Of a DNA stretch of 64,000 nt, positions 16,415 through 37,019 are shown in pieces. The DNA lies in the NCBI GenBank assembly GCA_937959265.1, contig CALGMA010000037.1:1-64000 (forward strand). Direction: 5' to 3'. The DNA comes from an uncultured Anaerolineae bacterium. Its GTDB lineage: Bacteria > Chloroflexota > Anaerolineae > J036 > Brachytrichaceae. The translations under genes were made by a program, and so were the position numbers. Below the pieces are notes generated by a model. The model was not told where the DNA came from, made no database searches, and saw only the letters and a list, made by a program, of their open reading frames with translations. How positions within the stretch are numbered: position 1 is the first letter of the stretch; every line of letters begins with the position of its first letter.

Positions 16415-16469
16415 AGTTCAGTTCATGATGCAAGATGTAGCATGCGCAAACTGCCAAACGCAGGGCGCT

Positions 16470-17387: not shown

Positions 17388-17397
17388 CTCCCCTCGA

Positions 17398-18348: not shown

Positions 18349-18396
18349 CAGGCAGAGGCGTGCTGCGGCAGACGGCGCGCACCTCCTTTATCGTCC

Positions 18397-19917: not shown

Positions 19918-20820
19918 TCAACGCGCGCCGGTATAGGCAATCCGCCACTCGCCAGCGTAGATGTTGAAACACGTGCTGCGCACGAAGCCAAGCAAGGTTA
20001 AGTTGAAGGTTTGCGCCAGCTCCACCGCCAGCGACGACGGCGCGCCCACCGCAGCCACTATCGGCGCATGCGCCATCAGCGCCTTTTGCATGATCTCGAA
20101 GCTGGCTCTGCCAGAGACCATCAGGAGATGGCGAGAGATCGGCAACTGGCGGTCCAGCAAGCGTTTGCCGATGAGTTTGTCGAGGGCGCTGTGCCGGCCC
20201 ACGTCTTCGTGCAGGGCAAGCAGGCGCCCTTCGCTGTCGAACAACGCCGCGGCATGCAGCCCACCGGTCTTGGCGAAAAGTGACTGCCGGCTGCGCAGCG
20301 CTGCGTCTAGCCGAACGATCATGTCGGCTTCAATCCGGAACGCATCGCGTGGCAGGGGTGCGCAGCCGCGCAGCTCCAGCGACTCCAGCGATGCCTTGCC
20401 ACACACGCCGCACGACGAAGTCGTGTAGAAGTTGCGCTGAATATGCGCGGCGTCGAACCTCACGCCGGGGCGAAGGTGCACAGTGACGACGTTGTATCGC
20501 GCTGGCCCACTCACCTGCTCCGCACCGTCGTCTGCGCCGTTTGCATCAGCCGCAGGCCCGGGCGCATCGTCGCAACAGTAGCGAATTCCGCCGATCTGCT
20601 CCCAAGTGTGCAGCAGACCTTCGCCGAACAAAAAGCCAGCGGCCAGCTCGAAATCTTCGCCGGGTGTGCGCATGATGACGGCCACCGGGTGCACACCATC
20701 ATCCGAGGCCACACGAATCTCGAGTGGTTCCTCAACAGCCAGGACATCCCGTTCGCGCACAGCTCGACCATCGCGCACTTTGCGCACATAGAGCCGGCGG
20801 AGATTGGGCTGGGTGAGCAT
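19918..20820 (-). CDS. fdhD: Formate dehydrogenase accessory sulfurtransferase FdhD
   Basis: A 300-residue protein that transfers sulfur from a cysteine desulfurase to the bis-MGD cofactor of formate dehydrogenase. The catalytic Cys-x2-Cys is seen at Cys137/Cys140 in TTSSCGVCGKAS. GEDFELAAGFLFGEGLL and the C-terminal VSGRASFEIMQKALMA and SSLAVELA stretches are family hallmarks. An Asp/Ala-rich insertion lies at about 88-105. It starts 71 bases after the FdhF-type gene and probably matures that enzyme. Confidence 0.93.
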   Translation of the reverse strand: MLTQPNLRRLYVRKVRDGRAVRERDVLAVEEPLEIRVASDDGVHPVAVIMRTPGEDFELAAGFLFGEGLLHTWEQIGGIRYCCDDAPGPAADANGADDGAEQVSGPARYNVVTVHLRPGVRFDAAHIQRNFYTTSSCGVCGKASLESLELRGCAPLPRDAFRIEADMIVRLDAALRSRQSLFAKTGGLHAAALFDSEGRLLALHEDVGRHSALDKLIGKRLLDRQLPISRHLLMVSGRASFEIMQKALMAHAPIVAAVGAPSSLAVELAQTFNLTLLGFVRSTCFNIYAGEWRIAYTGAR

Positions 20821-20829
20821 GGATCCGTG

Positions 20830-20864
20830 GAGATTGGAGACCGATGGTCAGTGGTTGATGATTG
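20830..20864. repeat. 7-bp-period degenerate tandem array between fdhF-like gene and fdhD
   Basis: GAGATTG, GAGACCG, ATGGTCA, GTGGTTG, ATGATTG. It fills most of the 71-base gap just upstream of the fdhD start. Confidence 0.7.
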
Positions 20865-20891
20865 GCATTGAACCTTTAATCCCTCATTCCT

Positions 20892-23111
20892 TCAATGGCC
20901 GATCTTCCGAAGCATTACGATCGCCTTATAGACCGGCACACCGGCGGCCGGGTCGGTACAGTGTGGCGCCAGCAAGACGTTGCCTTCCGGCCAATGCACC
21001 TGCACGTTGCGCGGCTTGATCGGCGCAAACTTCACGCGCACGCGCATCTCGCCAACACTCGACTGCACCATCACCCAATCGCCCTCGACCAGGCCCAGCG
21101 CCCGCGCATCCTCGGGGTTCATCAACATATCGTCGCGCCGCGCGCCGTTCAAGGGGTCGCGCTCCATGTGGATCAAGCTGTTGAACTGCTTGCCACGTCG
21201 GGTCTTGAGGATGAACGCACCGTCAGGCAGCGTGTATTCAGGAGGTGTGAGCGGGGTGAAGTGCGCGCGGCGGGTAGGCGTCGGGAAGTCGCCGCCGGCG
21301 CACAGCAAGCGCCCGCCCCACTGCACATGATCGCCCTTCTTCTTCAGATGCTGAATACCCTCATAGAACGACACAACGTGGGCGATCTCATCGCGTATGG
21401 CTTGCCCATTTTCGAAGTGGATGAGATGCCTGCGTCCCGGATAGACGTGCTCGGCGAGTTGCATGAGAATCTCCCACTCGCTGCGCGCCTCCGCTGGCGG
21501 ATCGGTGATCTTTGGTGAGAAGATCACCTGTCTCTCGGTGCTGGTTTGGGTGCCGCCATCGCGCTGTTCGTAGCGCGTGGCGGCCGGCAGCAAGATCACT
21601 GTGTCAGCCGGATCCACCAGCATTTGCGAGGTGGCGACGATGTCCTGGTGCACCCGCAACCCCGGCCGTTCCAGCGCTTGACGCACAAAGCGGGGATCCG
21701 GAAGCGTATCGAGGAAGTTGCCGCCGACGACATAGAACACATCCATCTTACCGGCATGGGCCGCCTCGAGCATATCGACGCATGCCAGACCCTTCCACGC
21801 CGGCACATCGAACCCCCACATCGCGCTGAAGCGCTGGGCGTTCGCCTCGTTGATGGGCTCGCCGCCAGGGAAGCTCCATGCCGCGCAACCCATCTCGCCA
21901 CCGCCCTGCACGCCGCTGTGGCCGCGAATCGGCATCACGCCGCAATGTTCGCGGCCGACGAAGCCACGCGCCAGTGCCAGGTTGAGAATGGCCTTCACAT
22001 TCTCCACACCGTTTTCATGCTGCGTGATTCCCATGCTCCACACGAACACCGCGCTCTTGGCCTGGGCCAGCATCTCGGCAAAGCGCAGCATCTCTTCGCG
22101 CGAGGCACCGCTGTAGCGCTCCAGCATCTCCCAGGGCTGCTCCACCAGCTCAGCCTCGACCGAGCCAAAACAATCGGTGTGCGCCGTGATGAACTCACGG
22201 TCGAGCCAGTCCCTCTCGATCAAATGTTTGAGCACACCGTTCAGGAAGGCCAAGTCACCGCCGGTGTGAATTTGGAAGAATTCATCAGCCAGTCGCGTGC
22301 CGAAGAGCGCGCTCTCGAACACGCTGGGCACCCAATAGCGTTCCAGGCCCGGCTCGCGGTAGGGGTTGATCACCACAATCCTGGAGCCGTGCTTCTTGGC
22401 GTGATAGAGATACTTGGTGGTGACGGGTTGATTGTTCGGCGTGTCGCTGCCGATGAAAATCAACAGATCGGCACCGATCCAGTCTTTGTACGAACAGGTC
22501 GAAGCTGCGACACCCAGTACCTGCTTCATGGCGACAGTGCTCGGCGAGTGACAAACGCGGGCAGCGTTGTCCACATTGTTCGTGCCGAGGAAGCGGGCGA
22601 CTTTCTGCGCCACGTAATACACCTCGTTAGTGAGGCCACGCGAAGTCAGATAGAAGCCAATCCGGCGCGGGTCAGTCTCACGGATGCGGCCGGCGATTTC
22701 GCCGAGCGCCTGATCCCAAGAAATGCGGGTGAAGCCCGGCTCACTGCGCCGGCGAATCATTGGATAAGGCAGGCGGCCCAACTCGCGCAGCGCTCTGCCA
22801 TTCATGCCGTGCAAGCGCGAAACGTCGGCCAGCGCGCCTGCGTCCATTGGCGGCATGGTACTCAACCGCAGCAAGTTCAACCGGACGGTGCACAAATGCA
22901 CGCCAGGGATGGTGAAATCGCGCAGGCCGGCCGTGCCCAGAGCGCAACCATCGCACACGCCATCGTTGAGGATACGCCACGCCAGCGGAAGATTGTCGCG
23001 ATTCTGCCAGGCCGCACGCACCATCTCCCAGTAGTGGTTCGGCTTGACATGTCCCAGCCCATTGGGCATCAAGCTCACCCACTGCGAGGTATCCATTCCG
23101 AGGAATTTCAT
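20892..23111 (-). CDS. FdhF/YdeP-family molybdopterin oxidoreductase
   Basis: A 739-residue bis-MGD enzyme of the FdhF/YdeP group (formate-dehydrogenase-like alpha subunits). The N-terminus has the group's RILNDGVCDGCALGTAGLRD with a Cys pair near 53-56 instead of a full [4Fe-4S] ferredoxin-like motif. ARVCHSPSTVAMKQVLGV supplies the probable Cys ligand to Mo. GHSGVQGGGEMGC and QFNSLIHMERDPLNGA are also typical. The C-terminal domain (EDARALGLVEGDWVMV) caps the cofactor. No NADH- or quinone-reacting subunit is adjacent. With fdhD next to it and folate C1 genes upstream, oxidation of formate is the simplest role, but YdeP-type enzymes are not all proven formate dehydrogenases. Confidence 0.85.
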   Translation of the reverse strand: MKFLGMDTSQWVSLMPNGLGHVKPNHYWEMVRAAWQNRDNLPLAWRILNDGVCDGCALGTAGLRDFTIPGVHLCTVRLNLLRLSTMPPMDAGALADVSRLHGMNGRALRELGRLPYPMIRRRSEPGFTRISWDQALGEIAGRIRETDPRRIGFYLTSRGLTNEVYYVAQKVARFLGTNNVDNAARVCHSPSTVAMKQVLGVAASTCSYKDWIGADLLIFIGSDTPNNQPVTTKYLYHAKKHGSRIVVINPYREPGLERYWVPSVFESALFGTRLADEFFQIHTGGDLAFLNGVLKHLIERDWLDREFITAHTDCFGSVEAELVEQPWEMLERYSGASREEMLRFAEMLAQAKSAVFVWSMGITQHENGVENVKAILNLALARGFVGREHCGVMPIRGHSGVQGGGEMGCAAWSFPGGEPINEANAQRFSAMWGFDVPAWKGLACVDMLEAAHAGKMDVFYVVGGNFLDTLPDPRFVRQALERPGLRVHQDIVATSQMLVDPADTVILLPAATRYEQRDGGTQTSTERQVIFSPKITDPPAEARSEWEILMQLAEHVYPGRRHLIHFENGQAIRDEIAHVVSFYEGIQHLKKKGDHVQWGGRLLCAGGDFPTPTRRAHFTPLTPPEYTLPDGAFILKTRRGKQFNSLIHMERDPLNGARRDDMLMNPEDARALGLVEGDWVMVQSSVGEMRVRVKFAPIKPRNVQVHWPEGNVLLAPHCTDPAAGVPVYKAIVMLRKIGH

Positions 23112-23175
23112 CGTCTATCCTCCGCAGGTGTGGCTGGCGACGCCGGCATCGCAGATGTCACGATGAAAGCGCCGC

Positions 23176-23202
23176 ACACCACGGACACCACCGACGCGCC
23201 GG
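23176..23202. repeat. Short 9-bp-period array between fdhF-like gene and the PF13769-like gene
   Basis: ACACCACGG, ACACCACCG, ACGCGCCGG: three units in the 93-base gap, sharing the ACAC core with the array at 142-195. Confidence 0.5.
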
Positions 23203-23204
23203 CA

Positions 23205-23501
23205 CTACCCTTTGATCTTCGCGACCGTTGCCCGCCAGTCAATCTCTGGGAATTGTGCATCCAATTCGGCAACGACGGCAAGCGCAACACGCTGAGCGTC
23301 GCCCTCGCGTTCCTGCGGGTCGCTCCAGCGAAATGCCGCAGTGTACTCGTCCGACCCGATCAGCCCAGCTGCCATCGCCGCGTTGTCTATCGCTTCCTGA
23401 AACCGTTGCGGCAATGGCACGCTGACGCGCTCGCGCCCGGCACCCTTAGCCCGCACCTGTGCCGGAATGTCATGCCAGTAAAGAATCTGGTAGGTTGCCA
23501 T
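23205..23501 (-). CDS. Small conserved protein, PF13769-like ('virulence factor' family)
   Basis: A 98-residue soluble protein starting MATYQILYWHDIPAQVRAKG, which matches the small family misleadingly named virulence factor in Pfam. The rest has PLPQRFQEAIDNAAMAAGL and FRWSDPQEREGDAQRVALA, also typical. No enzymatic motif is evident. Members recur beside corrinoid methyltransferase and MetF genes in alphaproteobacteria, and here too the gene lies in such an operon, 20 bases after the DUF1638 gene. An accessory role in one-carbon transfer is likely; its biochemical function is unknown. Confidence 0.75.
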   Translation of the reverse strand: MATYQILYWHDIPAQVRAKGAGRERVSVPLPQRFQEAIDNAAMAAGLIGSDEYTAAFRWSDPQEREGDAQRVALAVVAELDAQFPEIDWRATVAKIKG

Positions 23502-23521
23502 ACACGCTAATCAGCCATCAT

Positions 23522-24145
23522 CTACGACTGTTGATTGATGCGCGGCTTGTAGCGCTCGTCGGCAATTTCATCCATGAGCGCCACAAGCCGCGCCTCCATC
23601 TCGCCGTAGCTGGTGCGATGGATTCGCAACGGCAGACCGAGCTGCTCTGCCACGGCATGTGCTTTCGCGGCCAGGCGATCGTCATCGCGCTGGGCTAGGT
23701 AGACCACGCGCCGGTAATTTGCAAAATAGGTCTCCTTCAACTCCGGAAAGCGATCCAGTCCAAGGCCCTTCCACACCAAACCATCGAACCCTCGTAGCAG
23801 AAAGTCGGTGAGGAAGAAGGTGCCCGGCTCTGTATCCATCAGGGCATCGAACGCTGCGCCGGTATACATCTCGTAGCAGTGCGGCCCGGCGATGCGCGGC
23901 ACGTTGTAGCGCCGCAGCACATCGTCGAGCGCGCCGCCCGTGCCGCAGTCGCCATAGATGACCACGACGCGGTCGAAGCATGGGATTAATTCACGCAGCC
24001 TGCGTTCGACCAGCGGTGCGATACGCTCCGGGCGCATGTGCGCCTGCGCGTCCACGCCGTAGAGGCTCACGTTCCACCCTCGCCGGCGTGCGATGTCGGT
24101 CACCTCGCGCGCGAGCGCCCCGCACAGCACAAATGCCACGCGCAT
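23522..24145 (-). CDS. DUF1638 protein
   Basis: A 207-residue protein of the DUF1638 family. Three conserved Cys motifs are visible: VLCGALAREV (N-terminus), IYGDCGTGGALDD (near residue 70) and GPHCYEMYTG (near residue 90). These look like a metal- or corrinoid-ligand set but their role is unproven. The open frame continues upstream, but I place the start at ATG 24145, where homologous sequence (MRVAFVLCGAL) begins. ATGs at 24190 and 24208 would add residues encoded by a 9-bp repeat array. It follows the homocysteine methyltransferase gene. DUF1638 genes commonly accompany MttB-type methyltransferases. Confidence 0.8.
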   Translation of the reverse strand: MRVAFVLCGALAREVTDIARRRGWNVSLYGVDAQAHMRPERIAPLVERRLRELIPCFDRVVVIYGDCGTGGALDDVLRRYNVPRIAGPHCYEMYTGAAFDALMDTEPGTFFLTDFLLRGFDGLVWKGLGLDRFPELKETYFANYRRVVYLAQRDDDRLAAKAHAVAEQLGLPLRIHRTSYGEMEARLVALMDEIADERYKPRINQQS

Positions 24146-24150
24146 GTTTT

Positions 24151-24222
24151 GGACAGAATGGGCAGAATTCACAGAATCGGCTTTGTTCATTTCACTCATT
24201 CTGTTCATTTTGTTCACTCTGC
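24151..24222. repeat. 9-bp-period degenerate tandem array (8 units) upstream of the DUF1638 gene
   Basis: Units: GGACAGAAT, GGGCAGAAT, TCACAGAAT, CGGCTTTGT, TCATTTCAC, TCATTCTGT, TCATTTTGT, TCACTCTGC. The CAGAAT half and its complement (ATTCTG) occur in opposite orientation in the two halves, so the array can fold. It ends exactly at the stop codon of the homocysteine methyltransferase gene and shares its core with the array in metF. Confidence 0.85.
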
Positions 24223-25236: not shown

Positions 25237-25294
25237 GTGTCTTGTGCTACGTGTTGCGCATTCCGTCCACACAATCCGTAATGCGCTGTGTGCG

Positions 25295-25783
25295 CTACGC
25301 TCGCTGTTTCTCGATGAATTCTCGAACGCTCACGATCTGGGCAAGGTGTTCGTTGTCGTGCCCGATCAGGATCTCGACCTGCCGACGCAATTTGGTTACG
25401 CCGAGCGTCTCGTGTGTACATGTGCGCAGCCACTGCTGCGGGGTCAATCCATGCAGATAGTTGACCGTCGCCGCACGTTCCGCCGAAAAGACTTCAATCA
25501 AGTCCTTCACACTTTTAGTCAGATTATGGGTAGTCGGGTCAGGCCAGATGAGCGGCTCACGCGGGTCATCCTGCTCAACCATGCGCACGAAGCGCGCGCG
25601 GAACGCGATTTCGACCTGGGCCAAATGCGCGATCACGTCTTTGATGCACCACGCCTCAGGCGCCGGCCGCACCAACGCAGCGGCCTCATCCACGCGCCCC
25701 GTCAAACGCACCAGGTCACGCGGTGTACCGTCGAGCGCTTCGAGCAGCATTTGATACTTCGTGTGCAACGTGCGTGGGGTCAT
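25295..25783 (-). CDS. DinB-family four-helix metal-binding protein
   Basis: A 162-residue DinB/YfiT-like four-helix bundle. The likely metal ligands are His in KDVIAHLAQVE (about residue 53) and His-x3-His in GHDNEHLAQIVSV near the C-terminus. Known members are thiol transferases (mycothiol, bacillithiol) or hydrolases of similar fold. The start overlaps the stop of the RACo-type gene by ATGA, so its presence in this operon is not accidental. It may detoxify or activate an intermediate, but no function is proven. Confidence 0.8.
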   Translation of the reverse strand: MTPRTLHTKYQMLLEALDGTPRDLVRLTGRVDEAAALVRPAPEAWCIKDVIAHLAQVEIAFRARFVRMVEQDDPREPLIWPDPTTHNLTKSVKDLIEVFSAERAATVNYLHGLTPQQWLRTCTHETLGVTKLRRQVEILIGHDNEHLAQIVSVREFIEKQRA

Positions 25784-27933
25784 AGCGTTGATGTTTGCGC
25801 CTCCGACGAGGCCACTTGCGATGACGGAGCAGCGTTCCGCGCGCGTCGTTCGCGCCGGCGACGCGCGCGCGCGTCTTCGTTCGGTTCGTTCTGCTCATCC
25901 GGCAGCACGCCGATCGCTCTCAGGTGAGGGAACAGATCTACCCGGTTCGGTAGATGCATGGCGTTGACGAATTCCTCCTGGAAGGACGGGTCGATGGCCG
26001 TCTCGATGTAGTTCACACGACGTGCAGCTTGCGCCGACTCGGCTCGGCGCGCCTTGTTGAGCAGCGCAATGCGCGCTCCGTCGCCAGCGGCATTGCCCAC
26101 AGCAACCACACGCCCTAGATCACAATCGGGGAACATACCGAGCACCATCGCATGCAGCGGGTCAATATAGCTACCGAAGGCACCGGCCAGCACCACCCTG
26201 TCCACACGCTCGACACCGCGTCGGCGCATGAGCAATTTGCATCCAGCATACAGCGCTGCCTTTGCCAACTGGATGTTGCGCACATCGTCCTGCGTGATCA
26301 CGATCTCCCTGCCGAAGGCAGTCTGGTCGGCGGTCGCGAGCACATACTCGGCCTTGCGGCCGTTGAAGCGCAGACCGGGAGCTGCGCGCGGAGAGTGGGT
26401 GCTCGTTGCCGACTCCCCGCTCCCGATTCCCAATTCTTCACTAAATCTCCCATCCGGCCTGAGGATCCCCGCCATGAACAACTCGGCCACCGCTTCGATG
26501 ATGCCGCTGCCGCAGATGCCGGTCGCTTTGATCCGTTCCGGCGGCTGCTCATCGCTCCACAAATCGTTGCCGATCACCTTGAAGCGCGGGCGGCCGGTGG
26601 CGCGATCAATGCGCACGCGCTCGATGGCGCCCGGCGCAGCGCGCTGGCCATGCGTGATCTGCGCGCCCTCGAAGGCCGGGCCGGTCGGGCTGCTGCAGCT
26701 CCATATGCCTTCGCGATTGCCGAGCAGGATTTCGGCGTTCGTGCCCACGTCGATCACCAGCATCATTTCGTCCTGCTGGTCGGGCGCTTCGGCGATCAGC
26801 ACGCCGACGTTATCTGCGCCAACGTGGCCGGCCTGCAACGCGAGCAAATGCACATTGGCTGCCGGATGGATGCGCAAACCGAGATCGCGCGCTTTCACGT
26901 CCACCGGCGCATGGGTGGCCAACGTGAATGGCGCTGCACCGAGTTCGGTCGGATCGAGGCCGAGCAAAATGTGGTGCATGACAGTATTGCCGACCAGCAC
27001 GGCCTCGTAAACGTCATCCATGTTCACGCCGGCGCGCCTCACAGCCCGGGTCGCCAGCTCATTGAGCGCGCCGATGACCACGGCATGCAGCTTGCCCAGA
27101 CCTTCGGCATGCATCATAACGTAGCTCACCCGGCTCATCAGATCTTCGCCAAACGTGATTTGCGGGTTCATCACGCTCTCGGTTGCCAGAACAGCGCCAG
27201 TGTGCAAATCGCACAGGTGTGCCGCGATGGTGGTCGAGCCCACATCCACCGCCAGGCCATACATTGCGTCGCGAAAGCCCGGGCGCACATCAACCACTTC
27301 GCGCTCGTCCCAGACAACGACCGTGACGCGCGGATTGCCTGTCGGCGCAGCCGGCTTACCTGCCCGCAAAGCCGGCGTCAGTTGGCGCAGCGCATGGATA
27401 TCAATGCGCAAGCCCTCGAGCCCCCACTCGTGGCTCAACGCTTCCTGCAACCGTTCCCAATCACCTTTGCGCCCGCCAAGCGTGTTGGGCTCGACCTCGA
27501 CGAACATCTGGCGCAGGATCGGATCTATCGTGATCAGGCGGTCACGCGCGTCCTTGCGCACTACCTGCCGGTGCCGGGCGCTCTCGGGCGGCACAGTCAC
27601 CAGGACATCGCCGGTGATGCAAGCGGCGCAAGACAAGCGGTAATGGACAAATGATGATTGATGATTGGTAAGCGAGGAGGGATGTTTGGCAAAGTAGCGC
27701 GCTTCGTCCTCGCCCATCGGCGTGATGTGATCGAGCGAGGAAGCGATGCTGTATTTGGGGAACTGGCCGCTCTCGATGATGACCTTGCACTTGCCGCAGG
27801 TTTGTCGCCCGCCGCAGATGCTATCTATATCCACGCCAAGCTGGCGCGCAGCGTCGAGCAGCGTGGTGCCTTCAGCCACGCGCCCTTGCCGGCCAGAGGG
27901 CTGGAAGACGAGGCGATGCGTGTTCTGTGTCAT
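25780..27933 (-). CDS. RACo-type corrinoid reductive activase (ASKHA + [2Fe-2S])
   Basis: A 717-residue ATP-dependent reactivator that reduces cob(II)alamin of corrinoid proteins back to Co(I). Residues 1-110 form a [2Fe-2S] domain with Cys40, Cys46 and Cys49 plus Cys102/Cys105. The middle and C-terminal parts are an ASKHA fold (GLAVDVGSTTIAAHL; VIDVGTNAEILLGN; ATGICGSGIIEAVAELF; VVLAGAFGSYIDP). Start taken at ATG 27933. Two 7-bp arrays within the gene encode low-complexity inserts at about residues 82-93 and 494-507. The Arg-rich C-terminal tail (about 40 residues) is not conserved. It lies directly downstream of the corrinoid protein gene it should serve. Confidence 0.9.
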   Translation of the reverse strand: MTQNTHRLVFQPSGRQGRVAEGTTLLDAARQLGVDIDSICGGRQTCGKCKVIIESGQFPKYSIASSLDHITPMGEDEARYFAKHPSSLTNHQSSFVHYRLSCAACITGDVLVTVPPESARHRQVVRKDARDRLITIDPILRQMFVEVEPNTLGGRKGDWERLQEALSHEWGLEGLRIDIHALRQLTPALRAGKPAAPTGNPRVTVVVWDEREVVDVRPGFRDAMYGLAVDVGSTTIAAHLCDLHTGAVLATESVMNPQITFGEDLMSRVSYVMMHAEGLGKLHAVVIGALNELATRAVRRAGVNMDDVYEAVLVGNTVMHHILLGLDPTELGAAPFTLATHAPVDVKARDLGLRIHPAANVHLLALQAGHVGADNVGVLIAEAPDQQDEMMLVIDVGTNAEILLGNREGIWSCSSPTGPAFEGAQITHGQRAAPGAIERVRIDRATGRPRFKVIGNDLWSDEQPPERIKATGICGSGIIEAVAELFMAGILRPDGRFSEELGIGSGESATSTHSPRAAPGLRFNGRKAEYVLATADQTAFGREIVITQDDVRNIQLAKAALYAGCKLLMRRRGVERVDRVVLAGAFGSYIDPLHAMVLGMFPDCDLGRVVAVGNAAGDGARIALLNKARRAESAQAARRVNYIETAIDPSFQEEFVNAMHLPNRVDLFPHLRAIGVLPDEQNEPNEDARARRRRERRARNAAPSSQVASSEAQTSTL
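26411..26452. repeat. 7-bp-period array inside the RACo gene (C-terminal part)
   Basis: GACTCCC, CGCTCCC, GATTCCC, AATTCTT, CACTAAA, TCTCCCA. On the coding strand it gives a Gly/Ser/Glu-rich insert following GRFSEE. Total length 42 bp, so the frame is preserved. Confidence 0.75.
27653..27687. repeat. 7-bp-period array inside the RACo gene ([2Fe-2S] domain)
   Basis: GATGATT twice, then GGTAAGC, GAGGAGG, GATGTTT. It encodes the insert HPSSLTNHQSS between the third cluster Cys and the SCAAC motif. Confidence 0.7.
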
Positions 27934-27950
27934 GAACAGGGATCGAGGGG

Positions 27951-28637
27951 TCAGGGGGTAGTTCCCTGTTGACCGTTCTTCCACGCCATGTATTTCTTTG
28001 CGATCTCAACCGCCGTCGCCGCATCGCGGCCATAGGCATCGGCTTCGATCTCCTCGGCAAACGCCTCACTCACCGGCGCACCGCCCACCATCACGAACAC
28101 CTGGTTGCGCAGGCCTTCGTCCTTCAATGCCTGAATCACCACTTTCATGTAGGGCATAGTCGTGGTCAGCAGCGCACTCATGCCCACGATATCGGCATGG
28201 TGTTCTTTGACCGCTGCGACAAATTTATCGGCGTCGTTGTTGACACCCAGATTGATCACCTCGAAGCCAGCGCCCTCCATCATCATGCTGACCAGGTTCT
28301 TGCCAATGTCATGAATGTCGCCTTTGACTGTGCCGATCACCATCGTGCCGATGCGCGGCGCGCCGGTCTGCGTGAGCAGCGGGCGCAGGATCTCCATCCC
28401 TGCTTTCATCGCGTTGGCTGCCATCAACACCTCGGGCACGAACAACACGCCGTCACGGAAATCCACGCCGACGATGTCCATGCCGGCTACCAGGCCTTTG
28501 GCCAGCACCTCGGTTGGGCTGTAGCCGCGCGCAAGCGCCTCTTTCGTCTCCTCGACCACCTCATCCTTTAGCCCATCGTAGAGGTCGTCTTGCATCTGTA
28601 ACCAGAGTTCTTCGTCGGGAAGGTCTTTGAAGTCCAT
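27951..28637 (-). CDS. Corrinoid (cobalamin-binding) methyl-carrier protein, MttC/MtbC type
   Basis: A 228-residue two-domain protein. Residues 1-90 are the helical methionine-synthase cap (B12-binding 2); residues 95-220 are the Rossmann B12 domain. The base-off/His-on motif is complete: GDIHDIGKN with His109 as lower cobalt ligand, the SxL of GMSALLTTT (Ser154) and the GG of VMVGGAPVSE. It would accept a methyl group from the MttB-type enzyme and pass it to the folate methyltransferase encoded next. Genes on both sides are 15-17 bases away. Confidence 0.93.
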   Translation of the reverse strand: MDFKDLPDEELWLQMQDDLYDGLKDEVVEETKEALARGYSPTEVLAKGLVAGMDIVGVDFRDGVLFVPEVLMAANAMKAGMEILRPLLTQTGAPRIGTMVIGTVKGDIHDIGKNLVSMMMEGAGFEVINLGVNNDADKFVAAVKEHHADIVGMSALLTTTMPYMKVVIQALKDEGLRNQVFVMVGGAPVSEAFAEEIEADAYGRDAATAVEIAKKYMAWKNGQQGTTP

Positions 28638-28652
28638 TGTGCGCGACTCCTT

Positions 28653-29603
28653 CTAGCCTTGTATCTGCGTCGCCCGTCGTGCAGCGCGGCGAGCCTCTCG
28701 CTCGGCGCGGGCCGCTTCGGCAGCGGTTGCGCGCACGGCGGTGCCGCCCGCTTGCTGAGATTCCACTTCGCGCCGCGCTGCAATCCAGGCCATGCAATTA
28801 CTGTCGTTGCCCATGAGCAAGTTAGCAGCCAGGATGGCGTTTTTGATCTCCGGCTCGATCGGGTTTGTGATAGCACACGGCATCCCGGCGGCGATGGCCA
28901 TGCTGATGAAGGCAGCGTTCAGGATCAGCCGCCCCGGCAGGCCGAAGGAGATGTTGCTCGCGCCACACACAGTGTTGCAGCCTAGCTCCTCTCGGATCAT
29001 GCGCACGAGGTCGAACACCATCTTCCCGGCGCCATGTACAGCGCCGGCCGGCATAGCCAGCGGATCAATAATCACATCCTCACGCGGGATGCCATAGCGT
29101 TCGGCACGCTCGACGATCTTCTTCGCCACCTTAAAGCGCTCGCGGATGTCGTATGAGATACCAGTTTCGTCGTTGCTGATACCGATGACGGCGGCCCGAT
29201 GCTCGGCCACCATTGGCAACACCGACTCGAGCCGCTCCTCCTCGCCGGTCACTGAGTTTACCAGTGGCTTACCCTTCACGACTTCCAGACCCGCCTTGAG
29301 CGCTGCAATGACGGACGAGTCTATGCAGATCGGCACATCGGTGACAGACTGCACGACACGAATGGCCTCGGCCAGCAGCGCCGGCTCGTCGGCCAGCGGA
29401 ATCCCGGCGTTCACGTCCAGGACATGCGCGCCGGCAGCTACTTGCGCAATCGCATCATCGCGCACACGGCTGAAATCGCCAGCAGCCATCTCCGCCGCCA
29501 GTTTCTTGCGGCCGGTCGGGTTGATACGCTCGCCAATGATGACGAACGGCCGGTTCGGGCCGATCACGACAGTCTTGGTGGGTGAAGAGAGGGTGGTTTC
29601 CAT
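28653..29603 (-). CDS. Methylcorrinoid:tetrahydrofolate methyltransferase (pterin-binding domain)
   Basis: A TIM-barrel pterin-binding protein of about 316 residues, of the dihydropteroate synthase / MetH-folate / AcsE family. IIGERINPTGRKKL, HVLDVNAGIPLADE, ICIDSSVIAALKAGL and CGASNISFGLPGR are the pterin-site motifs; NPTGR and DVNAG with Asp and Asn are those seen in AcsE/MtgA. ATG 29603 is preferred over the TTG two codons upstream. The Ala/Arg-rich C-terminal helix (about 40 residues) is unusual. The function is transfer of methyl from the methylcorrinoid protein to tetrahydrofolate, giving 5-methyl-THF for MetF, or the reverse. Confidence 0.9.
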   Translation of the reverse strand: METTLSSPTKTVVIGPNRPFVIIGERINPTGRKKLAAEMAAGDFSRVRDDAIAQVAAGAHVLDVNAGIPLADEPALLAEAIRVVQSVTDVPICIDSSVIAALKAGLEVVKGKPLVNSVTGEEERLESVLPMVAEHRAAVIGISNDETGISYDIRERFKVAKKIVERAERYGIPREDVIIDPLAMPAGAVHGAGKMVFDLVRMIREELGCNTVCGASNISFGLPGRLILNAAFISMAIAAGMPCAITNPIEPEIKNAILAANLLMGNDSNCMAWIAARREVESQQAGGTAVRATAAEAARAEREARRAARRATQIQG

Positions 29604-29612
29604 TCTCAATCT

Positions 29613-30650
29613 TCAGACAGAATGAACAGAATGAACAGAATGAACAGAATGAGCGGAATGGATAGAACCAGTATTTGGCACTTGGTTCGTCTTGTTCGTT
29701 TTATCCAGATCGCCACGCAGGCGGCGCGGCAGCAGCCCAGCGCGCTGGATCACTTCGGCGACGGCCTCTTCTTGACGATAGGCCATGACGTGCACGCCAG
29801 CTACACCCTCGATCTCGCGCACCTGCTGGATGATCTCGATGCAGATACGTTTACCTTCCTCCGCCTGTTGTGCTTTGGGCGTCTTGGCCATGCGTTGCAT
29901 CACCGCATCGGGGATCCACACCCCCGGCACACGGTCGCGCATGAACTCAGCAGCTTTGTACGATCGAATCGGTCCAACACCGACAAGGATGTAAACGCGC
30001 TCGTGCAGGCCAAGGTCGCGCACGCGGCGCATGAACTGTTGCAAACGCGGCACGTCGAAGCAGTACTGCGTCTGGATGAACTCGGCGCCCGCGCGCACCT
30101 TCTTCTCCAGGCGCAGCGGCCGCCAATCGAGCGGCGGCGCAAAAGGGTTCTCCACGGCGCCCAGGAAGAACTGCGGCGGCATGCGCAACTTACGACCACT
30201 TAACAACACGCCGCGGTCGCGCATCATTCGGGCGATCTGCAACAGTTGGATCGAATCCAGGTCGAACACGCGCTTGGCTTCGGGCTGGTCGCCGGCCGAG
30301 ACGTCATCACCGGTGATGCACAACACGTTTCGCACACCCATCGCCGCCGCACCCAGCAAGTCGCCTTGGATGGCGATGCGATTGCGGTCCCGGCAGCCCA
30401 TTTGCAACACCGCTTCGTAGCCAGCGCGCGTCAGCAACGCGCAGCATCCCATGCTGCTCATATGGCAATTTGCGCCAGCACCATCGGTGGCGTTGATGGC
30501 ATCGCACACCTCGGCCAGCACCAGCGCGTTCTGATACACGTCGTTCGGGTCAGCACTGTCCGGAGCATCCAGCTCGGCAGTGACGGCAAAGCGTCCCGAA
30601 CGCAGCACACGCTCGAGACGCGAACGAGGCGGCATCATCAAGTCTTTCAT
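29613..30650 (-). CDS. metF: Methylenetetrahydrofolate reductase (MetF)
   Basis: A 345-residue MetF-type flavoprotein barrel interconverting 5-methyl- and 5,10-methylene-THF. Seen motifs: VTAELDAPD at the N-terminus, QGDLLGAAAMGVRNVLCITGDD, FFLGAVENPFAPP, and KVRAGAEFIQTQYCFD. The ATG at 30650 overlaps the metV stop (ATGA), which argues for a MetV-MetF complex. The last 30 residues are a repetitive Ser-Val-His tail encoded by a 9-bp tandem array, clearly an acquired low-complexity end. In this pathway it would run toward methylene-THF, feeding C1 oxidation. Confidence 0.92.
   Translation of the reverse strand: MKDLMMPPRSRLERVLRSGRFAVTAELDAPDSADPNDVYQNALVLAEVCDAINATDGAGANCHMSSMGCCALLTRAGYEAVLQMGCRDRNRIAIQGDLLGAAAMGVRNVLCITGDDVSAGDQPEAKRVFDLDSIQLLQIARMMRDRGVLLSGRKLRMPPQFFLGAVENPFAPPLDWRPLRLEKKVRAGAEFIQTQYCFDVPRLQQFMRRVRDLGLHERVYILVGVGPIRSYKAAEFMRDRVPGVWIPDAVMQRMAKTPKAQQAEEGKRICIEIIQQVREIEGVAGVHVMAYRQEEAVAEVIQRAGLLPRRLRGDLDKTNKTNQVPNTGSIHSAHSVHSVHSVHSV
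29617..29706. repeat. 9-bp-period tandem array forming the 3' end of metF
   Basis: ACAGAATGA four times, then diverging units GCGGAATGG, ATAGAACCA, GTATTTGGC, ACTTGGTTC, GTCTTGTTC, GTTTTATCC. Nine bases give a three-residue repeat, read on the minus strand as Ser-Val-His. Confidence 0.9.
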
Positions 30651-31144
30651 CCCCACCCTTTTGGCGTCCGTGCGTCGCGCCCTTCGATCATGGTCACCCA
30701 GGCCGACTCACCTTGAAGCGCACGGTTGACCGGCGGCTGAATCACCTTGATATCGTCGGCGAAGATCAGCATCGCCTGGCTGCGTTCCCAAGCTTGCACC
30801 CATACGCACGGCATATCCGGGATCACCTCGCAATGACCGTTGGGCCGTACCCCGCCGCATGGCCCGTTGCGCAAGTTCTTTGGGCAATTCATCGGGCAGG
30901 TCATGCCGGTGCTGTGCAAGATGCATTGCCCGCACATCTGGCAATTGAACACCCAGCCCTTCAACACCTTTTCACTCCACACCATCAGCCTATCGGCGAG
31001 GCGCGAATGGATACGCTTCATCAAAGGATAGACTGTCGCAATGATGCGCTTGGAAAGAAGATAGACACGCTCCAGCCAGTGTGGACGATTCTTAAGCCAC
31101 TCTGCGCCGGGCATACGCCGCGCCTCTTTCATACGAGCAACCAT
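30647..31144 (-). CDS. metV: MetV-like zinc/Fe-S subunit of methylenetetrahydrofolate reductase
   Basis: A protein of about 165 residues of the MTHFR_C / MetV family. The Cys cluster CQMCGQCILHSTGMTCPMNC, followed by CPKNLRNGPCGGVRPNGHCEV, is the family signature; in acetogen MetVF complexes this subunit carries metal centres and links MetF to its electron donor. The N-terminal 60 residues are basic and helical. It overlaps metF by ATGA. ATG at 31144 is preferred over the GTG two codons upstream. Its presence suggests that MetF here may use a donor other than free NADH. Confidence 0.85.
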   Translation of the reverse strand: MVARMKEARRMPGAEWLKNRPHWLERVYLLSKRIIATVYPLMKRIHSRLADRLMVWSEKVLKGWVFNCQMCGQCILHSTGMTCPMNCPKNLRNGPCGGVRPNGHCEVIPDMPCVWVQAWERSQAMLIFADDIKVIQPPVNRALQGESAWVTMIEGRDARTPKGWG

Positions 31145-31168
31145 GGTCACACCCCATCTTGCACGACG

Positions 31169-32734
31169 TCACTCGCGCACCAAGCGACCGGCACGAATCT
31201 CGGCGCGGCGCTTCTCGACGAATTCATGCAGCGCCTCCCTCATCCCTTCATCGAGCGCTGGCGGCTGATACTCTTGCAACATGCGCTTCCAGACAGCGTT
31301 CGCGCGCTTATAGACATCCTCCGCACCCTCGCTCTCCCACTTCTCATAGTTGTCCATGTTGAATACGGCATGCTGGTAGAACGCCGTCTCGTAGTGGCGC
31401 ATGGTGTGCTGCGAGCCGAGGAAATGATTACCGGGGCCAACTTCCTCATAGGCATCCCATGCAAAGTCCTCCTCATCCAGGCCGATGCCCTGCACGAACT
31501 TTGCCATCATGCCGCACATCTCCAGGTCCAGGATGAACTTCTCGTAACCGGCGATCAAGCCGCCCTCTAACCAACCAGCCGCGTGCAACACGAAGTTGAC
31601 GCCTGCCTGTACCGTCGTCGTGAACGTGCTGGCGCTCTCGTAGCCGGCCTGCGCGTCGGGGATGCGCGACGCGGTAAAGTTGCCACCGCTGCGGTAAGGC
31701 AAGTTGTAATGGCGCGCCATCTGTGCGCCGGCGTAGAGCGCCAGATTGCCCTCCGGTGTGCCGAAGCAAGGCACACCACTCTTCAGGTCAATATTCGCCA
31801 GAAACGAACCGTAGATGCAGGGTGTTCCGGGGTTGAGCATTTGCGCATAGCAAATGCCGAACAGTGCCTCCGCGTTCTGCTGCGCCAGCGTAGCGGCCAT
31901 GCTCACTGGCGACATCGCGCCGGCGATGAGGAAGGGCGTGATGAGCAGTGCCTGCTTCGCCTGCGCGTAGACCTCCAGCGCGCCGAACATGCGGTCGTCA
32001 AAGCGCAGCGGCGACGACGCATTAATGAGCGAGAGTACCGCGGGGCGCTCGCGGATCGCCTCTGCCCCGAAGACGATCTCGGCCATCGCCACCGTGTCGC
32101 GCGCATTCTCCTGATGCGTCACGCTGCCCATGAACGCCTTGTCGCTCAACGTGATATGCGCGAGCAGCATGTCGAGGTGGCGCTCCTTCACGTCTACATC
32201 GTTTGGCTCGCACAATGTGCCGCCGTCGTGATGCAAATGCTCGCTCATGTAAGTCAGGCGGACGAAATTGCAAAAGTCCTCGATGGTCGCCGGCTGCCGG
32301 CCACGGTCGAGGTCGAGCACGAACGGTGGGCCATACACCGGCGCAAAGACGGTATATCGTCCGCCGATAGGCGCATCCTTAGCCGGATTACGCGCACGCT
32401 GCACGAACGACGCAGGCGCCTGCCGGATGAAATGCAGCAGCGTGTCCTCGTCAATCTTCACTAGCTGGCCGTCGGACCGCTCCTCGACAATTGCACCGTG
32501 ACGGCGGAAGGTCTCGGCAGCACGGGGATAGTCCACGATCAGGATGCCGATCTCCTTCAACAAGCGCATGGAGGCGCGATGGATTTTGTCCACACCCTCA
32601 GGAGACAATGCCTCGGTCGGCGGAAGCGCATTGACCAGCGGCTTGATCGCGTCAACGAAGGCGAAGCCGCGCTGGCGGCGGCGGGCGTCGCGTTCGCGTC
32701 GAGCGCGGCGTTCGGTGATAGGTGCAGTTGTCAT
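31169..32734 (-). CDS. MttB-family corrinoid methyltransferase without pyrrolysine
   Basis: A 521-residue protein of the trimethylamine methyltransferase (MttB) superfamily. The frame is uninterrupted: no in-frame TAG, so no pyrrolysine. It therefore belongs with the non-Pyl members, of which characterised ones demethylate quaternary amines (glycine betaine, proline betaine, carnitine, gamma-butyrobetaine). Family segments seen: GVDKIHRASMRLLKEIGI, GTPCIYGSFLANIDLKSG, GNLALYAGAQMARHYNLPY and AGWLEGGLIAGYEKFILDLE. The first 30 residues are Arg-rich. It is the first enzyme gene of the operon, ten bases after the IclR gene, and should determine which methylated compound is used. The substrate cannot be read from sequence. 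Confidence 0.9.
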   Translation of the reverse strand: MTTAPITERRARRERDARRRQRGFAFVDAIKPLVNALPPTEALSPEGVDKIHRASMRLLKEIGILIVDYPRAAETFRRHGAIVEERSDGQLVKIDEDTLLHFIRQAPASFVQRARNPAKDAPIGGRYTVFAPVYGPPFVLDLDRGRQPATIEDFCNFVRLTYMSEHLHHDGGTLCEPNDVDVKERHLDMLLAHITLSDKAFMGSVTHQENARDTVAMAEIVFGAEAIRERPAVLSLINASSPLRFDDRMFGALEVYAQAKQALLITPFLIAGAMSPVSMAATLAQQNAEALFGICYAQMLNPGTPCIYGSFLANIDLKSGVPCFGTPEGNLALYAGAQMARHYNLPYRSGGNFTASRIPDAQAGYESASTFTTTVQAGVNFVLHAAGWLEGGLIAGYEKFILDLEMCGMMAKFVQGIGLDEEDFAWDAYEEVGPGNHFLGSQHTMRHYETAFYQHAVFNMDNYEKWESEGAEDVYKRANAVWKRMLQEYQPPALDEGMREALHEFVEKRRAEIRAGRLVRE

Positions 32735-32744
32735 GCCTCAACAA

Positions 32745-33566
32745 TTAACCACGAAGCCCACGAAGTTGACGAAGGCTGTCGAGGAGCACTTCGCGTTGCT
32801 TGGTGACCTTCAGGGATAGATATCCCAGCTTCGCACTGATCGCGTCGGCTGTGTCTTTCGTCGGTTGGATCAAATGGCCAGCGTCTTGTTCCTTCGGCCA
32901 GCGAAAGGCCGGACCGAACAAACATACCGACGCCACAATACGCCCCGCATCGTCATAGATCGGCGCAGCCACGCCGACGATATCCGGATCGAACTCGCCG
33001 TCGGTCCAAGCGTAGCCTTTGCGTCGAATGGCGCGCAGCGCGCGGCGGAGCGCCGCCGGCGATGCAAGCGTCGTCGGGGTAAAGCGCTGCAACGGGTGCT
33101 GTAGATAACGTTCGATCTGAGCCGGGCTACGATGGGCCAGGTAGAGTTTGCCGTCGGAACATGCATGCAGTGGTAAGCGCTGCCCCACCCAACTGCGCAC
33201 CTGCAGCGCGCGTGCCGCGTCAATTTGGTCCACATAGTGGGCATAGTCGCCATCCGGCACACAGAGCGTGAGCGTCTCGCCGGTAGCTTCGGCCAGTCCT
33301 TGCAAAAACGGGCGGGCCACGGCAACCAGGCTCCGCGCATAAGGCGCGTGCGAAACGAGGGAGATCAACGCCTGGCCGATCCGAAAACCGTCGCGATCGC
33401 CATTGCGCTCTACCGCGCCCACCGCCTCCAGCGTCGAGAGCATTCGCGAGACGGTACTCTTGGGCAGCGCGACACGCGCGACAATCTCGGACAGACCGGC
33501 ACCCTCATCGCACGAGAGCGCCATCAGAATGTCGAACGCGCGTCGGACGGATTGAATTTCGGACAT
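32745..33566 (-). CDS. IclR-family transcriptional regulator
   Basis: A 273-residue regulator. Residues 1-65 are the winged HTH (SVRRAFDILMALSCDEGAGLSEIVARVALPKSTVSRMLSTL, given here only to mark the domain by its start and end). Residues 80-250 are the GAF-like IclR effector domain (SLVAVARPFLQGLAEATGETL; PIYDDAGRIVASVCLFG). It is the promoter-proximal gene of the methyltransferase operon and probably both controls it and senses its substrate. A palindromic site lies 18 bases upstream of its start. The 3' end of the gene contains a 9-bp array (32748-32774) that encodes the last Leu/Arg-rich residues. Confidence 0.9.
   Translation of the reverse strand: MSEIQSVRRAFDILMALSCDEGAGLSEIVARVALPKSTVSRMLSTLEAVGAVERNGDRDGFRIGQALISLVSHAPYARSLVAVARPFLQGLAEATGETLTLCVPDGDYAHYVDQIDAARALQVRSWVGQRLPLHACSDGKLYLAHRSPAQIERYLQHPLQRFTPTTLASPAALRRALRAIRRKGYAWTDGEFDPDIVGVAAPIYDDAGRIVASVCLFGPAFRWPKEQDAGHLIQPTKDTADAISAKLGYLSLKVTKQREVLLDSLRQLRGLRG
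32748..32774. repeat. 9-bp-period array at the 3' end of the iclR-type gene
   Basis: ACCACGAAG, CCCACGAAG, TTGACGAAG. Three units, coding for the C-terminal Leu-Arg residues of the regulator. Confidence 0.65.
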
Positions 33567-33610: not shown

Positions 33611-33692
33611 ATTAAAACGCAAAACTTAAACGACGTCAAATCCAACCATCAATCATGATGGCTGGGCCACGGATATGGTAGGCTTGGCTGCG

Positions 33693-34874: not shown

Positions 34875-34877
34875 GCG

Positions 34878-35549: not shown

Positions 35550-35556
35550 CCGCCAA

Positions 35557-36045: not shown

Positions 36046-36051
36046 GTCATT

Positions 36052-36687: not shown

Positions 36688-36992
36688 TCGTGATCCGAGG
36701 TCACCGAGCTGGCGTTGACGATTTCATCGTAGAGCCAGGTGCCCAACCCGACGAGGACGCCAACGACGCCCAGGATGAGCATCACCGGGTGCAGCACAAC
36801 GCCAAAAGCTGCCAGTGTCATGCCCGCTCCAAGGATGATGGGAGACAGGCTGGGTGCCGGCATATGCGGCTCATGCACCTCGGCATGATCATGGCCGGCG
36901 GTGCCTGCAGCAGGCTCAAGATATCCCTTCGCATCGCCAGTCGAGACAGCAACGGTAGGGGACGTGTTCCGAGTCGTTTCTTGCATGGTCAT
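36684..36992 (-). CDS. Small two-helix oxidase protein (cytochrome c oxidase subunit IV-like)
   Basis: A 102-residue protein with a hydrophilic N-terminal half containing GHDHAEVHEPH and two C-terminal membrane helices (LSPIILGAGMTLAAFGVV; PVMLILGVVGVLVGLGTW). Size, topology and place between ctaAB and coxC fit the poorly conserved subunit IV of caa3 oxidases. The His-rich N-terminus might bind metal. Stop overlaps the coxC start. Confidence 0.65.
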   Translation of the reverse strand: MTMQETTRNTSPTVAVSTGDAKGYLEPAAGTAGHDHAEVHEPHMPAPSLSPIILGAGMTLAAFGVVLHPVMLILGVVGVLVGLGTWLYDEIVNASSVTSDHE

Positions 36993-37019
36993 CTTGGTCT
37001 TGTGATGTCGAGAGGATCG

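What the first reader, a model, noticed from the sequence alone, without database searches (positions are those of the whole stretch)
19918..33566. A 13-gene corrinoid demethylation operon with its own C1-oxidation end in an apparently aerobic bacterium
Seen: IclR, non-pyrrolysine MttB, MetV, MetF, folate methyltransferase, corrinoid protein, RACo, DinB, homocysteine methyltransferase, DUF1638, PF13769-like, FdhF/YdeP and FdhD lie on one strand with mostly 4-90 base gaps and several ATGA overlaps. Known: MttB-type enzymes without pyrrolysine demethylate quaternary amines such as glycine betaine or carnitine, mainly in anaerobes, passing methyl through a corrinoid protein to folate. Inference: this operon takes methyl groups from an unidentified N-methyl compound to folate and on to formate and CO2, or to homocysteine, in an organism that also carries a caa3 oxidase and Mn-SOD. 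An oxygen-compatible, self-contained B12 methylotrophy module in this lineage would be new or poorly described.
Basis: partly seen in the sequence, partly recalled or inferred. Interest (0 to 1): 0.88.

Follow-up and report, generated by a model that had tools for sequence, protein, structure and literature searches.

The report
Chloroflexota vitamin-B12 glycine betaine demethylation operon
A probably oxygen-respiring Chloroflexota bacterium carries, in one gene block, a vitamin-B12 enzyme set that most likely strips a methyl group from the common osmolyte glycine betaine and helps burn it to CO2; the pathway type is known from marine and soil proteobacteria, but its compact form here and one unexplained small protein in it point to an unrecognised part of the B12-repair machinery.

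Summary
In detail: 13 same-strand genes with gaps of -10 to +93 bases and the claimed families. The contig belongs to its genus; gene order is kept in Ca. Roseilinea sp. SKYG71 and Anaerolineae HOT.MB2.30. Best reading: an aerobic-type MtgBCDE glycine betaine demethylation system. MttB keeps four residues that docking predicts to hold betaine in MtgB. 10 of 34 orthologue loci carry betaine uptake, choline dehydrogenase or full-length dimethylglycine-dehydrogenase-like genes, controls 0 of 24. Of 8 family members searched, only this genome has MttB, such dehydrogenases and a strong betaine-binding protein. It is not self-contained: FolD and Fhs lie elsewhere, and full MetH exists. The kind is not new: shown genetically in Ruegeria in 2025 (PMC12478193). 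Apparently new: PF13769, misnamed 'virulence factor', belongs to it. It accompanies DUF1638 plus RACo in 16 of 18 loci not chosen for it, is in 51 of 82 MttB-bearing but only 5 of 318 other genomes, and is fused to RACo in Terrarubrum, suggesting a third corrinoid-reactivation component. Substrate and activity are untested.

The parts
32745..33566 (-). IclR-type regulator, likely local regulator of the operon
   Evidence: PF01614 and PF09339 over cut-off; an IclR homologue flanks the same module in many of the other Chloroflexota loci read
31169..32734 (-). MtgB-like non-pyrrolysine MttB: N-methyl compound (best guess glycine betaine):corrinoid methyltransferase
   Evidence: PF06253 686 bits; no in-frame stop; Y134 N238 R348 H384 align with MtgB Y94 N199 R309 H345; tree
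30647..31150 (-). MetV, MTHFR partner with eight cysteines
   Evidence: PF12225; cysteines
29613..30656 (-). MetF, methylene-tetrahydrofolate reductase, inferred to run in the oxidative direction
   Evidence: PF02219; 63-64% identical to MetF of the Sinorhizobium and Paracoccus modules
28653..29603 (-). MtgD-like pterin-binding methyltransferase (corrinoid to tetrahydrofolate)
   Evidence: PF00809, NF005719 over cut-off
27951..28637 (-). MtgC-like corrinoid protein
   Evidence: PF02310, PF02607; DIHDIG motif; NCBIfam MtgC models match below cut-off
25780..27933 (-). RACo/RamA-like ATP-dependent corrinoid reductive activase with N-terminal 2Fe-2S domain
   Evidence: PF14574, PF17651, PF17650, PF00111; start refined
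25295..25783 (-). DinB_2-family protein, role unknown
   Evidence: PF12867; at the same place in L083 and L084
24223..25236 (-). MtgE-like homocysteine methyltransferase
   Evidence: PF02574; C220, C286, C287 (zinc role recalled)
23522..24145 (-). DUF1638 protein, predicted corrinoid-reactivation factor
   Evidence: PF07796; start ATG 24145; role from PMC5764234 and PMC12478193
23205..23501 (-). PF13769 ('virulence factor') small protein; proposed third component of corrinoid reactivation
   Evidence: PF13769 74 bits; fused to RACo in L145; beside DUF1638 in many loci
20892..23111 (-). FdhF/YdeP-family (Fdh4A-like) molybdenum formate dehydrogenase
   Evidence: TIGR01701 687 bits over cut-off; ARVCH motif at residue 184
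19918..20820 (-). FdhD sulfurtransferase for formate dehydrogenase maturation
   Evidence: NF001943 over cut-off
15611..19842 (-). Solute-binding protein, two ABC permeases and PhyH; same strand, 75 bases downstream; membership in the operon unproven
   Evidence: PF13416/PF01547, PF00528 twice, PF05721; gaps; absent together with the operon in G304

Best explanation
The operon encodes an aerobic-type MtgBCDE corrinoid demethylation system whose main substrate is most likely glycine betaine. MttB/MtgB moves one methyl group from the quaternary amine to Co(I) of the MtgC-like corrinoid protein, leaving dimethylglycine. The MtgD-like enzyme passes the methyl to tetrahydrofolate; MetVF oxidises methyl-THF to methylene-THF; FolD (contig C11) and Fhs (contig C27) take it on to formate with ATP gain; the Fdh4A-like FdhF/YdeP, matured by FdhD, oxidises formate to CO2. 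MtgE can instead send the methyl to homocysteine, although a full MetH exists. Because Co(I) is oxidised now and then, more so under oxygen, RACo with DUF1638 and, I propose, the PF13769 protein reduces it back. Dimethylglycine is then oxidised by the two DMGDH/SARDH-like enzymes of this genome. Shown by sequence: families, gene order, kept residues, presence of the other genes. Inferred: substrate, directions, regulation by IclR, role of PF13769.
For: Families and gaps. Similar gene sets in proteobacteria: Sinorhizobium pSymB, Paracoccus, Azoarcus pAZKH; Azoarcus has corrinoid-DUF1638-PF13769-MetV-MetF-pterin methyltransferase-RACo in one run, with glycine betaine ProV, permease and binding-protein genes and an FAD oxidoreductase 32% like DMGDH nearby. 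Ruegeria mtgC and mtgD mutants lose growth on betaine (PMC12478193). The MtgB residues Y94, N199, R309, H345, predicted by docking (PMC6855144, passages), are all kept; 68 of 80 aligned MttB rows keep them, while this genome's second MttB has S at position 94. Neighbours: 10 of 34 loci have a full-length DMGDH-like (DAO, FAO_M, GCV_T), BetA, OpuAC or ProW gene; three more have only a stand-alone GCV_T protein; controls 0 of 24. Among 8 genomes of the own family only G000 has MttB, PF16350 (two copies) and an OpuAC match above 100 bits; that OpuAC gene lies beside a fused permease over the choline and betaine models' cut-offs and a choline dehydrogenase over its cut-off. FolD and Fhs present. 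No acetyl-CoA synthase (CdhC) match, so not acetogenic. FdhF/YdeP with FdhD is tied to formate oxidation in Pseudomonas putida (PMC10308882, passages).
Against: NCBIfam MtgC models match below their cut-offs (225 of 370 and 188 of 310 bits), as does TIGR02369 for MttB (311 of 525). The four 'betaine' residues come from docking and also occur in MttB rows whose substrate is unknown. 21 of 34 orthologue loci show none of the betaine-related neighbours (some contigs are short). A few query genes came from the tested loci, and 19 of the 24 controls come from G000 itself. The transporter 75 bases downstream is not of the OpuAC type. The betaine genes are on other contigs of a draft genome with 5% contamination. 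A weak OpuAC match over cut-off also occurs in same-genus G152 (23.7 bits). A same-genus, 99% complete genome lacks the block, so it is not a core trait.
Confidence: 0.72

Rival explanations
1. Same chemistry, different substrate: the MttB demethylates another quaternary or tertiary N-methyl compound (choline, carnitine, gamma-butyrobetaine, proline betaine, tetramethylammonium), perhaps brought in by the ABC transporter downstream.
For: The MttB superfamily has many substrates; MtyB and MtcB, 53% identical, are assigned to different ones (PMC8604678, passages). Choline dehydrogenase genes next to orthologues (L085, L088, L109) could also mean choline-linked use. The adjacent transporter is not of the OpuAC type.
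Against: The enzyme keeps the four residues predicted for betaine; orthologue neighbourhoods hold DMGDH-like and betaine-uptake genes; the related Azoarcus module is flanked by genes annotated as glycine betaine transport.
Confidence: 0.2
2. The operon is mainly a split methionine synthase: methyl-THF to corrinoid to homocysteine, with MttB as a side entrance.
For: Homologues of MtgC, MtgD, MtgE, RACo and DUF1638 form the split methionine synthase of Phaeobacter (PMC5764234, passages), and an MtgE-like gene is in the operon.
Against: A full-length MetH over cut-off is on contig C19, as in all seven family relatives searched. MetV, MetF, FdhF and FdhD in the operon point to oxidation.
Confidence: 0.05
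3. The contig is misbinned: it comes from another Chloroflexota lineage and says nothing about this organism.
For: Genome contamination is 5.1%; none of the seven genus or family relatives has an MttB; the best MttB there besides its own is from another family (G318, 74%).
Against: The CtaAB fusion on the contig is 75% identical to same-genus G304, then 54-55% over full length to two same-family genomes; window 8113-11677 and 33674-42751 are collinear with G304:C100; base composition of block and flanks is alike; Ca. Roseilinea sp. SKYG71 carries the operon beside the same upstream gene.
Confidence: 0.03

Closest known systems
Aerobic MtgBCDE system of Ruegeria pomeroyi, with the related split methionine synthase of Phaeobacter inhibens and the co-localised genes of Sinorhizobium meliloti (PMC12478193; PMC5764234)
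   Same: Separate MtgB, MtgC, MtgD, MtgE proteins, RamA/RACo and DUF1638 reactivation, a MetF for oxidation of methyl-THF; in S. meliloti the parts are co-localised.
   Different: Here one continuous same-strand run in a Chloroflexota with MetV, an Fdh4A-like formate dehydrogenase with FdhD, IclR, DinB and PF13769; full MetH also present; Fhs and no PurU over cut-off.
MtgB system of Desulfitobacterium hafniense (PDB 2qne/9yce for MtgB)
   Same: Non-pyrrolysine MttB; same predicted betaine residues.
   Different: D. hafniense is an anaerobe (passages); its MtgB falls outside the group of Chloroflexota and proteobacterial enzymes in a quick tree (98 SH-aLRT).
Azoarcus sp. KH32C pAZKH cluster (L146)
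   Same: Corrinoid, DUF1638, PF13769, MetV, MetF, pterin methyltransferase, RACo in one run, plus betaine transport genes.
   Different: PurU beside the run on the other strand and no FdhF/FdhD annotated in the 24 kb; MttB about 12 kb away; no MtgE-like match in the stretch.
FdhF/YdeP formate dehydrogenases PP_0256/PP_4596 of Pseudomonas putida and Fdh4A of Methylobacterium (PMC10308882)
   Same: FdhF/YdeP family; FdhD beside PP_0256.
   Different: Here linked to a corrinoid demethylation operon.

Membership tests
Aerobic-type MtgBCDE glycine betaine demethylation system | Non-pyrrolysine PF06253 methyltransferase (MtgB) | tested here: met
   686 bits, 521 aa open frame, no in-frame stop
Aerobic-type MtgBCDE glycine betaine demethylation system | Separate corrinoid protein (MtgC) | tested here: met
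   PF02310 and PF02607 over cut-off; but the NCBIfam MtgC models stay below their cut-offs
Aerobic-type MtgBCDE glycine betaine demethylation system | Separate pterin-binding methyltransferase (MtgD) and homocysteine methyltransferase (MtgE) | tested here: met
   NF005719 over cut-off; PF02574 over cut-off; PRK07534 model 311 of 338 bits, below cut-off
Aerobic-type MtgBCDE glycine betaine demethylation system | RamA/RACo and DUF1638 reactivation proteins | tested here: met
   PF14574 and PF07796 over cut-off
Aerobic-type MtgBCDE glycine betaine demethylation system | Growth on, and demethylation of, glycine betaine in air | not testable with these tools
   Needs enzyme or culture work; only context and residues support it
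Aerobic-type MtgBCDE glycine betaine demethylation system | Absence of classical MetH (108 of 156 bearers in PMC12478193; common, not defining) | tested here: not met
   Full MetH on C19, 1634 bits
Pyrrolysine trimethylamine methyltransferase MttB | In-frame UAG for pyrrolysine and TIGR02369 over cut-off | tested here: not met
   No in-frame stop; 310.7 of 525 bits
Wood-Ljungdahl acetogenesis | Acetyl-CoA synthase | tested here: not met
   No CdhC (PF03598) match in G000; two of the 14 control genomes ring; genome about 94% complete
FdhF/YdeP formate dehydrogenase | TIGR01701 membership with FdhD and Cys-His at the active site | tested here: met
   687 against a cut-off of 582 bits; ARVCH at 184 (the comparison with the Sec-His pair of E. 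coli FdhF is recalled)
FdhF/YdeP formate dehydrogenase | Formate oxidation | not testable with these tools
   Supported for relatives in P. putida

The most novel reading that the evidence does not exclude
PF13769, named 'virulence factor' in Pfam, is an unrecognised third component of the corrinoid reductive-reactivation machinery, working with RACo and DUF1638, and perhaps typical of corrinoid methyltransferase systems that must run under oxygen.
Probability: 0.6. Interest if true: 0.62.

Novelty: new variant of a known kind. Interest (0 to 1): 0.5.

Why it matters
It extends B12-dependent betaine demethylation, shown genetically in marine proteobacteria, to Ca. Roseilinea-type Chloroflexota, a lineage known from hot-spring mats (search listing), and places methyl removal, entry into folate oxidation and formate oxidation in one gene block. 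It also gives a concrete function to test for PF13769 and sharpens the question, left open by Price and co-workers, of what DUF1638 does: both travel with RACo, and PF13769 is fused to RACo in one soil alphaproteobacterium.

Tried and rejected
Misbinning of the contig: tested and set aside. Recent gain by a mobile element: window 11678-33673 is missing in G304, where 122 bases lie instead, but no exact direct repeat of 10 bases or more joins the two block ends (400 bases each searched), base composition is alike and Pfam scans of the ORFs at the block's left end found ROK and GntR/UTRA proteins and one 89-aa frame without a match, no transposase. I read the G304 state as more likely a loss, because the more distant L084 (flanking gene 63% identical against 81% for G304) has the operon at the same place; this rests on one flanking gene. 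DUF1638 fold: a good model (mean pLDDT 87.5) gave no useful match (two hits at E <= 0.001, both with TM-score below 0.4); three cysteines are invariant in 5 sequences, which may mean a metal or cluster, untested. PF13769 fold: poor model (pLDDT 53), not searched. Sequence searches of solved structures with both alignments found nothing convincing. Placement against MtpB, MtcB and MtyB was not done: I found no source for their sequences in the calls made, so the tree has only MtgB and the Sinorhizobium 4yyc enzyme as solved references. The six shorter DMGDH hits turned out to be stand-alone GCV_T proteins, so I do not count them as full-length DMGDH. Literature: no paper in the held library combined PF13769 with DUF1638 or corrinoid terms (a gene called only 'virulence factor' would be missed). 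Listings of searches for Chloroflexi, SAR202 or Anaerolineae with betaine or MttB terms and for Roseilinea (12 to 20 rows seen of longer lists) showed none whose title or abstract start describes this module there; PMC9999580 (passages) reports non-pyrrolysine mttB transcripts in a sponge community, and PMC6306507 (passages) notes sarcosine oxidase and formate dehydrogenase in SAR202 Chloroflexi that might serve demethylation. Many subscription papers are not covered.


Full report
Observation. The 13 genes are real. Pfam and NCBIfam give IclR, MTTB (PF06253, 686 bits), MetV (PF12225), MTHFR, a pterin-binding methyltransferase (NF005719 over cut-off), a B12-binding corrinoid protein, RACo with a 2Fe-2S domain, DinB_2, homocysteine methyltransferase, DUF1638, PF13769, FdhF/YdeP (TIGR01701 over cut-off) and FdhD. 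All lie on the minus strand, with gaps of 10, 18, -10, 9, 15, 17, -4, 58, 77, 20, 93 and 71 bases after start refinement. The same-strand run goes on into a solute-binding protein, two permeases and PhyH (gaps 75, 48, 10, 55).

Whose genome. The window is the first 64 kb of contig C37 of a 52-contig, 4.01 Mb genome, 94.2% complete with 5.1% contamination. The CtaAB fusion on the contig is 75% identical to same-genus G304 and 54-55% over full length to two same-family genomes. Window 8113-11677 and 33674-42751 are collinear with G304:C100 at 76-83% nucleotide identity, while window 11678-33673 is absent there (122 bases instead). So the contig belongs to the genus, and the 22 kb block is variable within it. 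In named genomes the closest MttB is from Candidatus Roseilinea sp. SKYG71 (95%) and Anaerolineae bacterium HOT.MB2.30 (89%). L083 is collinear from IclR to DUF1638, where its contig ends; L084 from IclR to FdhF; both have the same upstream gene. That the window's organism is a Ca. Roseilinea relative is my inference. Ca. [quoted passage not shown] the terms formate, osmolyte, methylotroph and cobalamin do not occur in that text.

Module in other lineages. In 400 genomes of the phylum (handles G000 to G399 in all three searches), 82 have an MttB match, 56 a PF13769 match and 79 a DUF1638 match. PF13769 and MttB coincide in 51 genomes; 31 have MttB alone and 5 PF13769 alone (Fisher p about 8e-37). 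MttB and DUF1638 coincide in 53, PF13769 and DUF1638 in 38. These counts ignore relatedness, so the p value is only a guide. In fetched loci the set corrinoid, DUF1638, PF13769, pterin methyltransferase, RACo and MttB recurs in other orders in several genera of family f33 and in f31, and RACo, corrinoid, HMT, DUF1638, PF13769, MetV, MetF and pterin methyltransferase recur in L112 and in G318 (L121). Much of the set is on Sinorhizobium pSymB (L004), a Paracoccus plasmid (L003, no PF13769 found) and Azoarcus pAZKH (L146). In many of the Chloroflexota MttB loci (for example L086, L087, L110, L114) none of the other module genes sought was found near the MttB, so in those genomes the parts lie elsewhere or are missing; I did not search those genomes whole.

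Substrate. (a) Residues Y94, N199, R309 and H345, predicted by docking in MtgB (PMC6855144, passages), align with Y134, N238, R348 and H384 of the window enzyme; 68 of 80 rows keep all four; the 12 that do not are 25-44% identical to the window enzyme and include this genome's second MttB, with S at position 94. (b) In the tree the window enzyme lies in a 30-row group of Chloroflexota enzymes with one Trueperaceae and one unclassified bacterium (100 SH-aLRT); next come a G184 enzyme and then proteobacterial and f33 enzymes, which include PDB 4yyc; MtgB lies outside (quick method, midpoint root, several long branches). (c) Of 34 orthologue loci, 10 hold a full-length DMGDH-like gene (five confirmed with DAO, FAO_M and GCV_T domains: L087, L092, L107, L111, L114), a BetA, an OpuAC or a ProW gene; L096, L099 and L108 have only a stand-alone GCV_T protein; 24 control stretches have none of these. 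A few query sequences came from the tested loci, so those hits are partly self-matches, and 19 of the controls are from this one genome. (d) Among 8 genomes of the own family only G000 has MttB, PF16350 proteins (two) and an OpuAC match above 100 bits (G152 has a weak one of 23.7 bits, over cut-off). Three further family members seen were not searched for these. The strong OpuAC gene lies beside a permease over the TIGR03416 and PRK10952 cut-offs and a choline dehydrogenase over TIGR01810; one DMGDH-like gene lies beside an aldehyde dehydrogenase that scores below the betaine-aldehyde models' cut-offs. This makes a choline to betaine to dimethylglycine to sarcosine route plausible. It does not prove it.

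Fate of the methyl group. FolD is on C11 and Fhs on C27, about 2.3 kb from the second MttB. No PurU reached its cut-off in G000. No acetyl-CoA synthase match was found. A full MetH is present, so the MtgE-like enzyme is not the only methionine synthase. FdhF/YdeP enzymes, one with FdhD, are tied to formate oxidation in P. putida and resemble Fdh4A (PMC10308882, passages); the window protein has ARVCH at residue 184 (the comparison with E. coli FdhF is recalled).

PF13769. It is a steady member: of 21 loci in which both DUF1638 and RACo were found, 18 also carry PF13769. Of the three without, L083 ends just after DUF1638 and is set aside; L003 (Paracoccus) and L124 (G184, a genome with acetyl-CoA synthase) truly lack it in the stretch read. 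Leaving out the two loci fetched because of PF13769 itself gives 16 of 18. In the 400-genome set, 34 of 62 PF13769 places lie within 2 kb of a DUF1638 match; the other 28, many of them low-scoring, do not, and their context was not examined. All 9 plasmid records with a PF13769 hit have it near a gene of such a module: five stretches were read (in L148 only the pterin methyltransferase was found nearby), and for the other four the MttB and PF13769 coordinates lie within 3.5 kb. In Terrarubrum flagellatum the gene after the B12-binding and DUF1638 genes encodes PF13769 fused to a 2Fe-2S domain and RACo. Price and co-workers tied a RamA-like protein and DUF1638 to B12 reactivation by mutant fitness and left DUF1638 without a specific role (PMC5764234, passages); 'PF13769' and 'virulence factor' do not occur in that text, and no paper in the held library combined PF13769 with DUF1638 or corrinoid terms. 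The fusion is one case among the 9 plasmid records; more are needed. Against the idea: DUF1638 and RACo can go without PF13769 (L003, L124), and Gemmatirosa (L147) has PF13769 with RACo but no DUF1638 found.

Compared with what is known. The kind is the aerobic MtgBCDE system (PMC12478193: outline, passages, Results part 1, section 7 and Discussion seen). That paper already reports co-location in S. meliloti and the spread over Alpha-, Delta- and Gammaproteobacteria; the word beginning Chloroflex does not occur in its main text. The window's system differs by lineage, by the one-block layout with MetVF and an Fdh4A-like end, and by co-existence with MetH. I therefore file it as a new variant of a known kind, with the PF13769 proposal as the boldest reading not excluded.

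Noticed in passing
G000:C27:30842-32347 (L002, L038): A second non-pyrrolysine MttB (42% identical) about 2.3 kb from the genome's Fhs gene, with S in place of the MtgB Y94 residue, so probably another substrate.
   Followed up: partly
29617-29660 and 24184-24221: Short tandem repeats at the MetF/MeTr junction (9-base unit ACAGAATGA) and between the homocysteine methyltransferase and DUF1638 (18-base unit of similar letters), inside the operon.
   Followed up: partly
11678-33673: A 22 kb block, operon plus ABC/PhyH/Gfo-type cassette, present here and absent from same-genus G304 at an otherwise collinear site, without direct repeats or a transposase in the ORFs scanned.
   Followed up: yes
L145:10001-12283: PF13769 fused to 2Fe-2S and RACo domains in Terrarubrum flagellatum, annotated only as virulence factor.
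   Followed up: yes
L123 (G184:C57): Six divergent MttB-family genes (25-36% identity) with corrinoid and pterin methyltransferase genes in one 20 kb stretch of a genome that has acetyl-CoA synthase.
   Followed up: no
L085:9992-16895: MttB orthologue directly followed by a NuoEF-like fusion and an FdhA-like gene, suggesting an NAD-linked formate dehydrogenase tied to the same pathway in another Chloroflexota.
   Followed up: no
L118 (G283:C57): A same-family genome without MttB has another corrinoid protein next to a homocysteine methyltransferase at a contig end.
   Followed up: no
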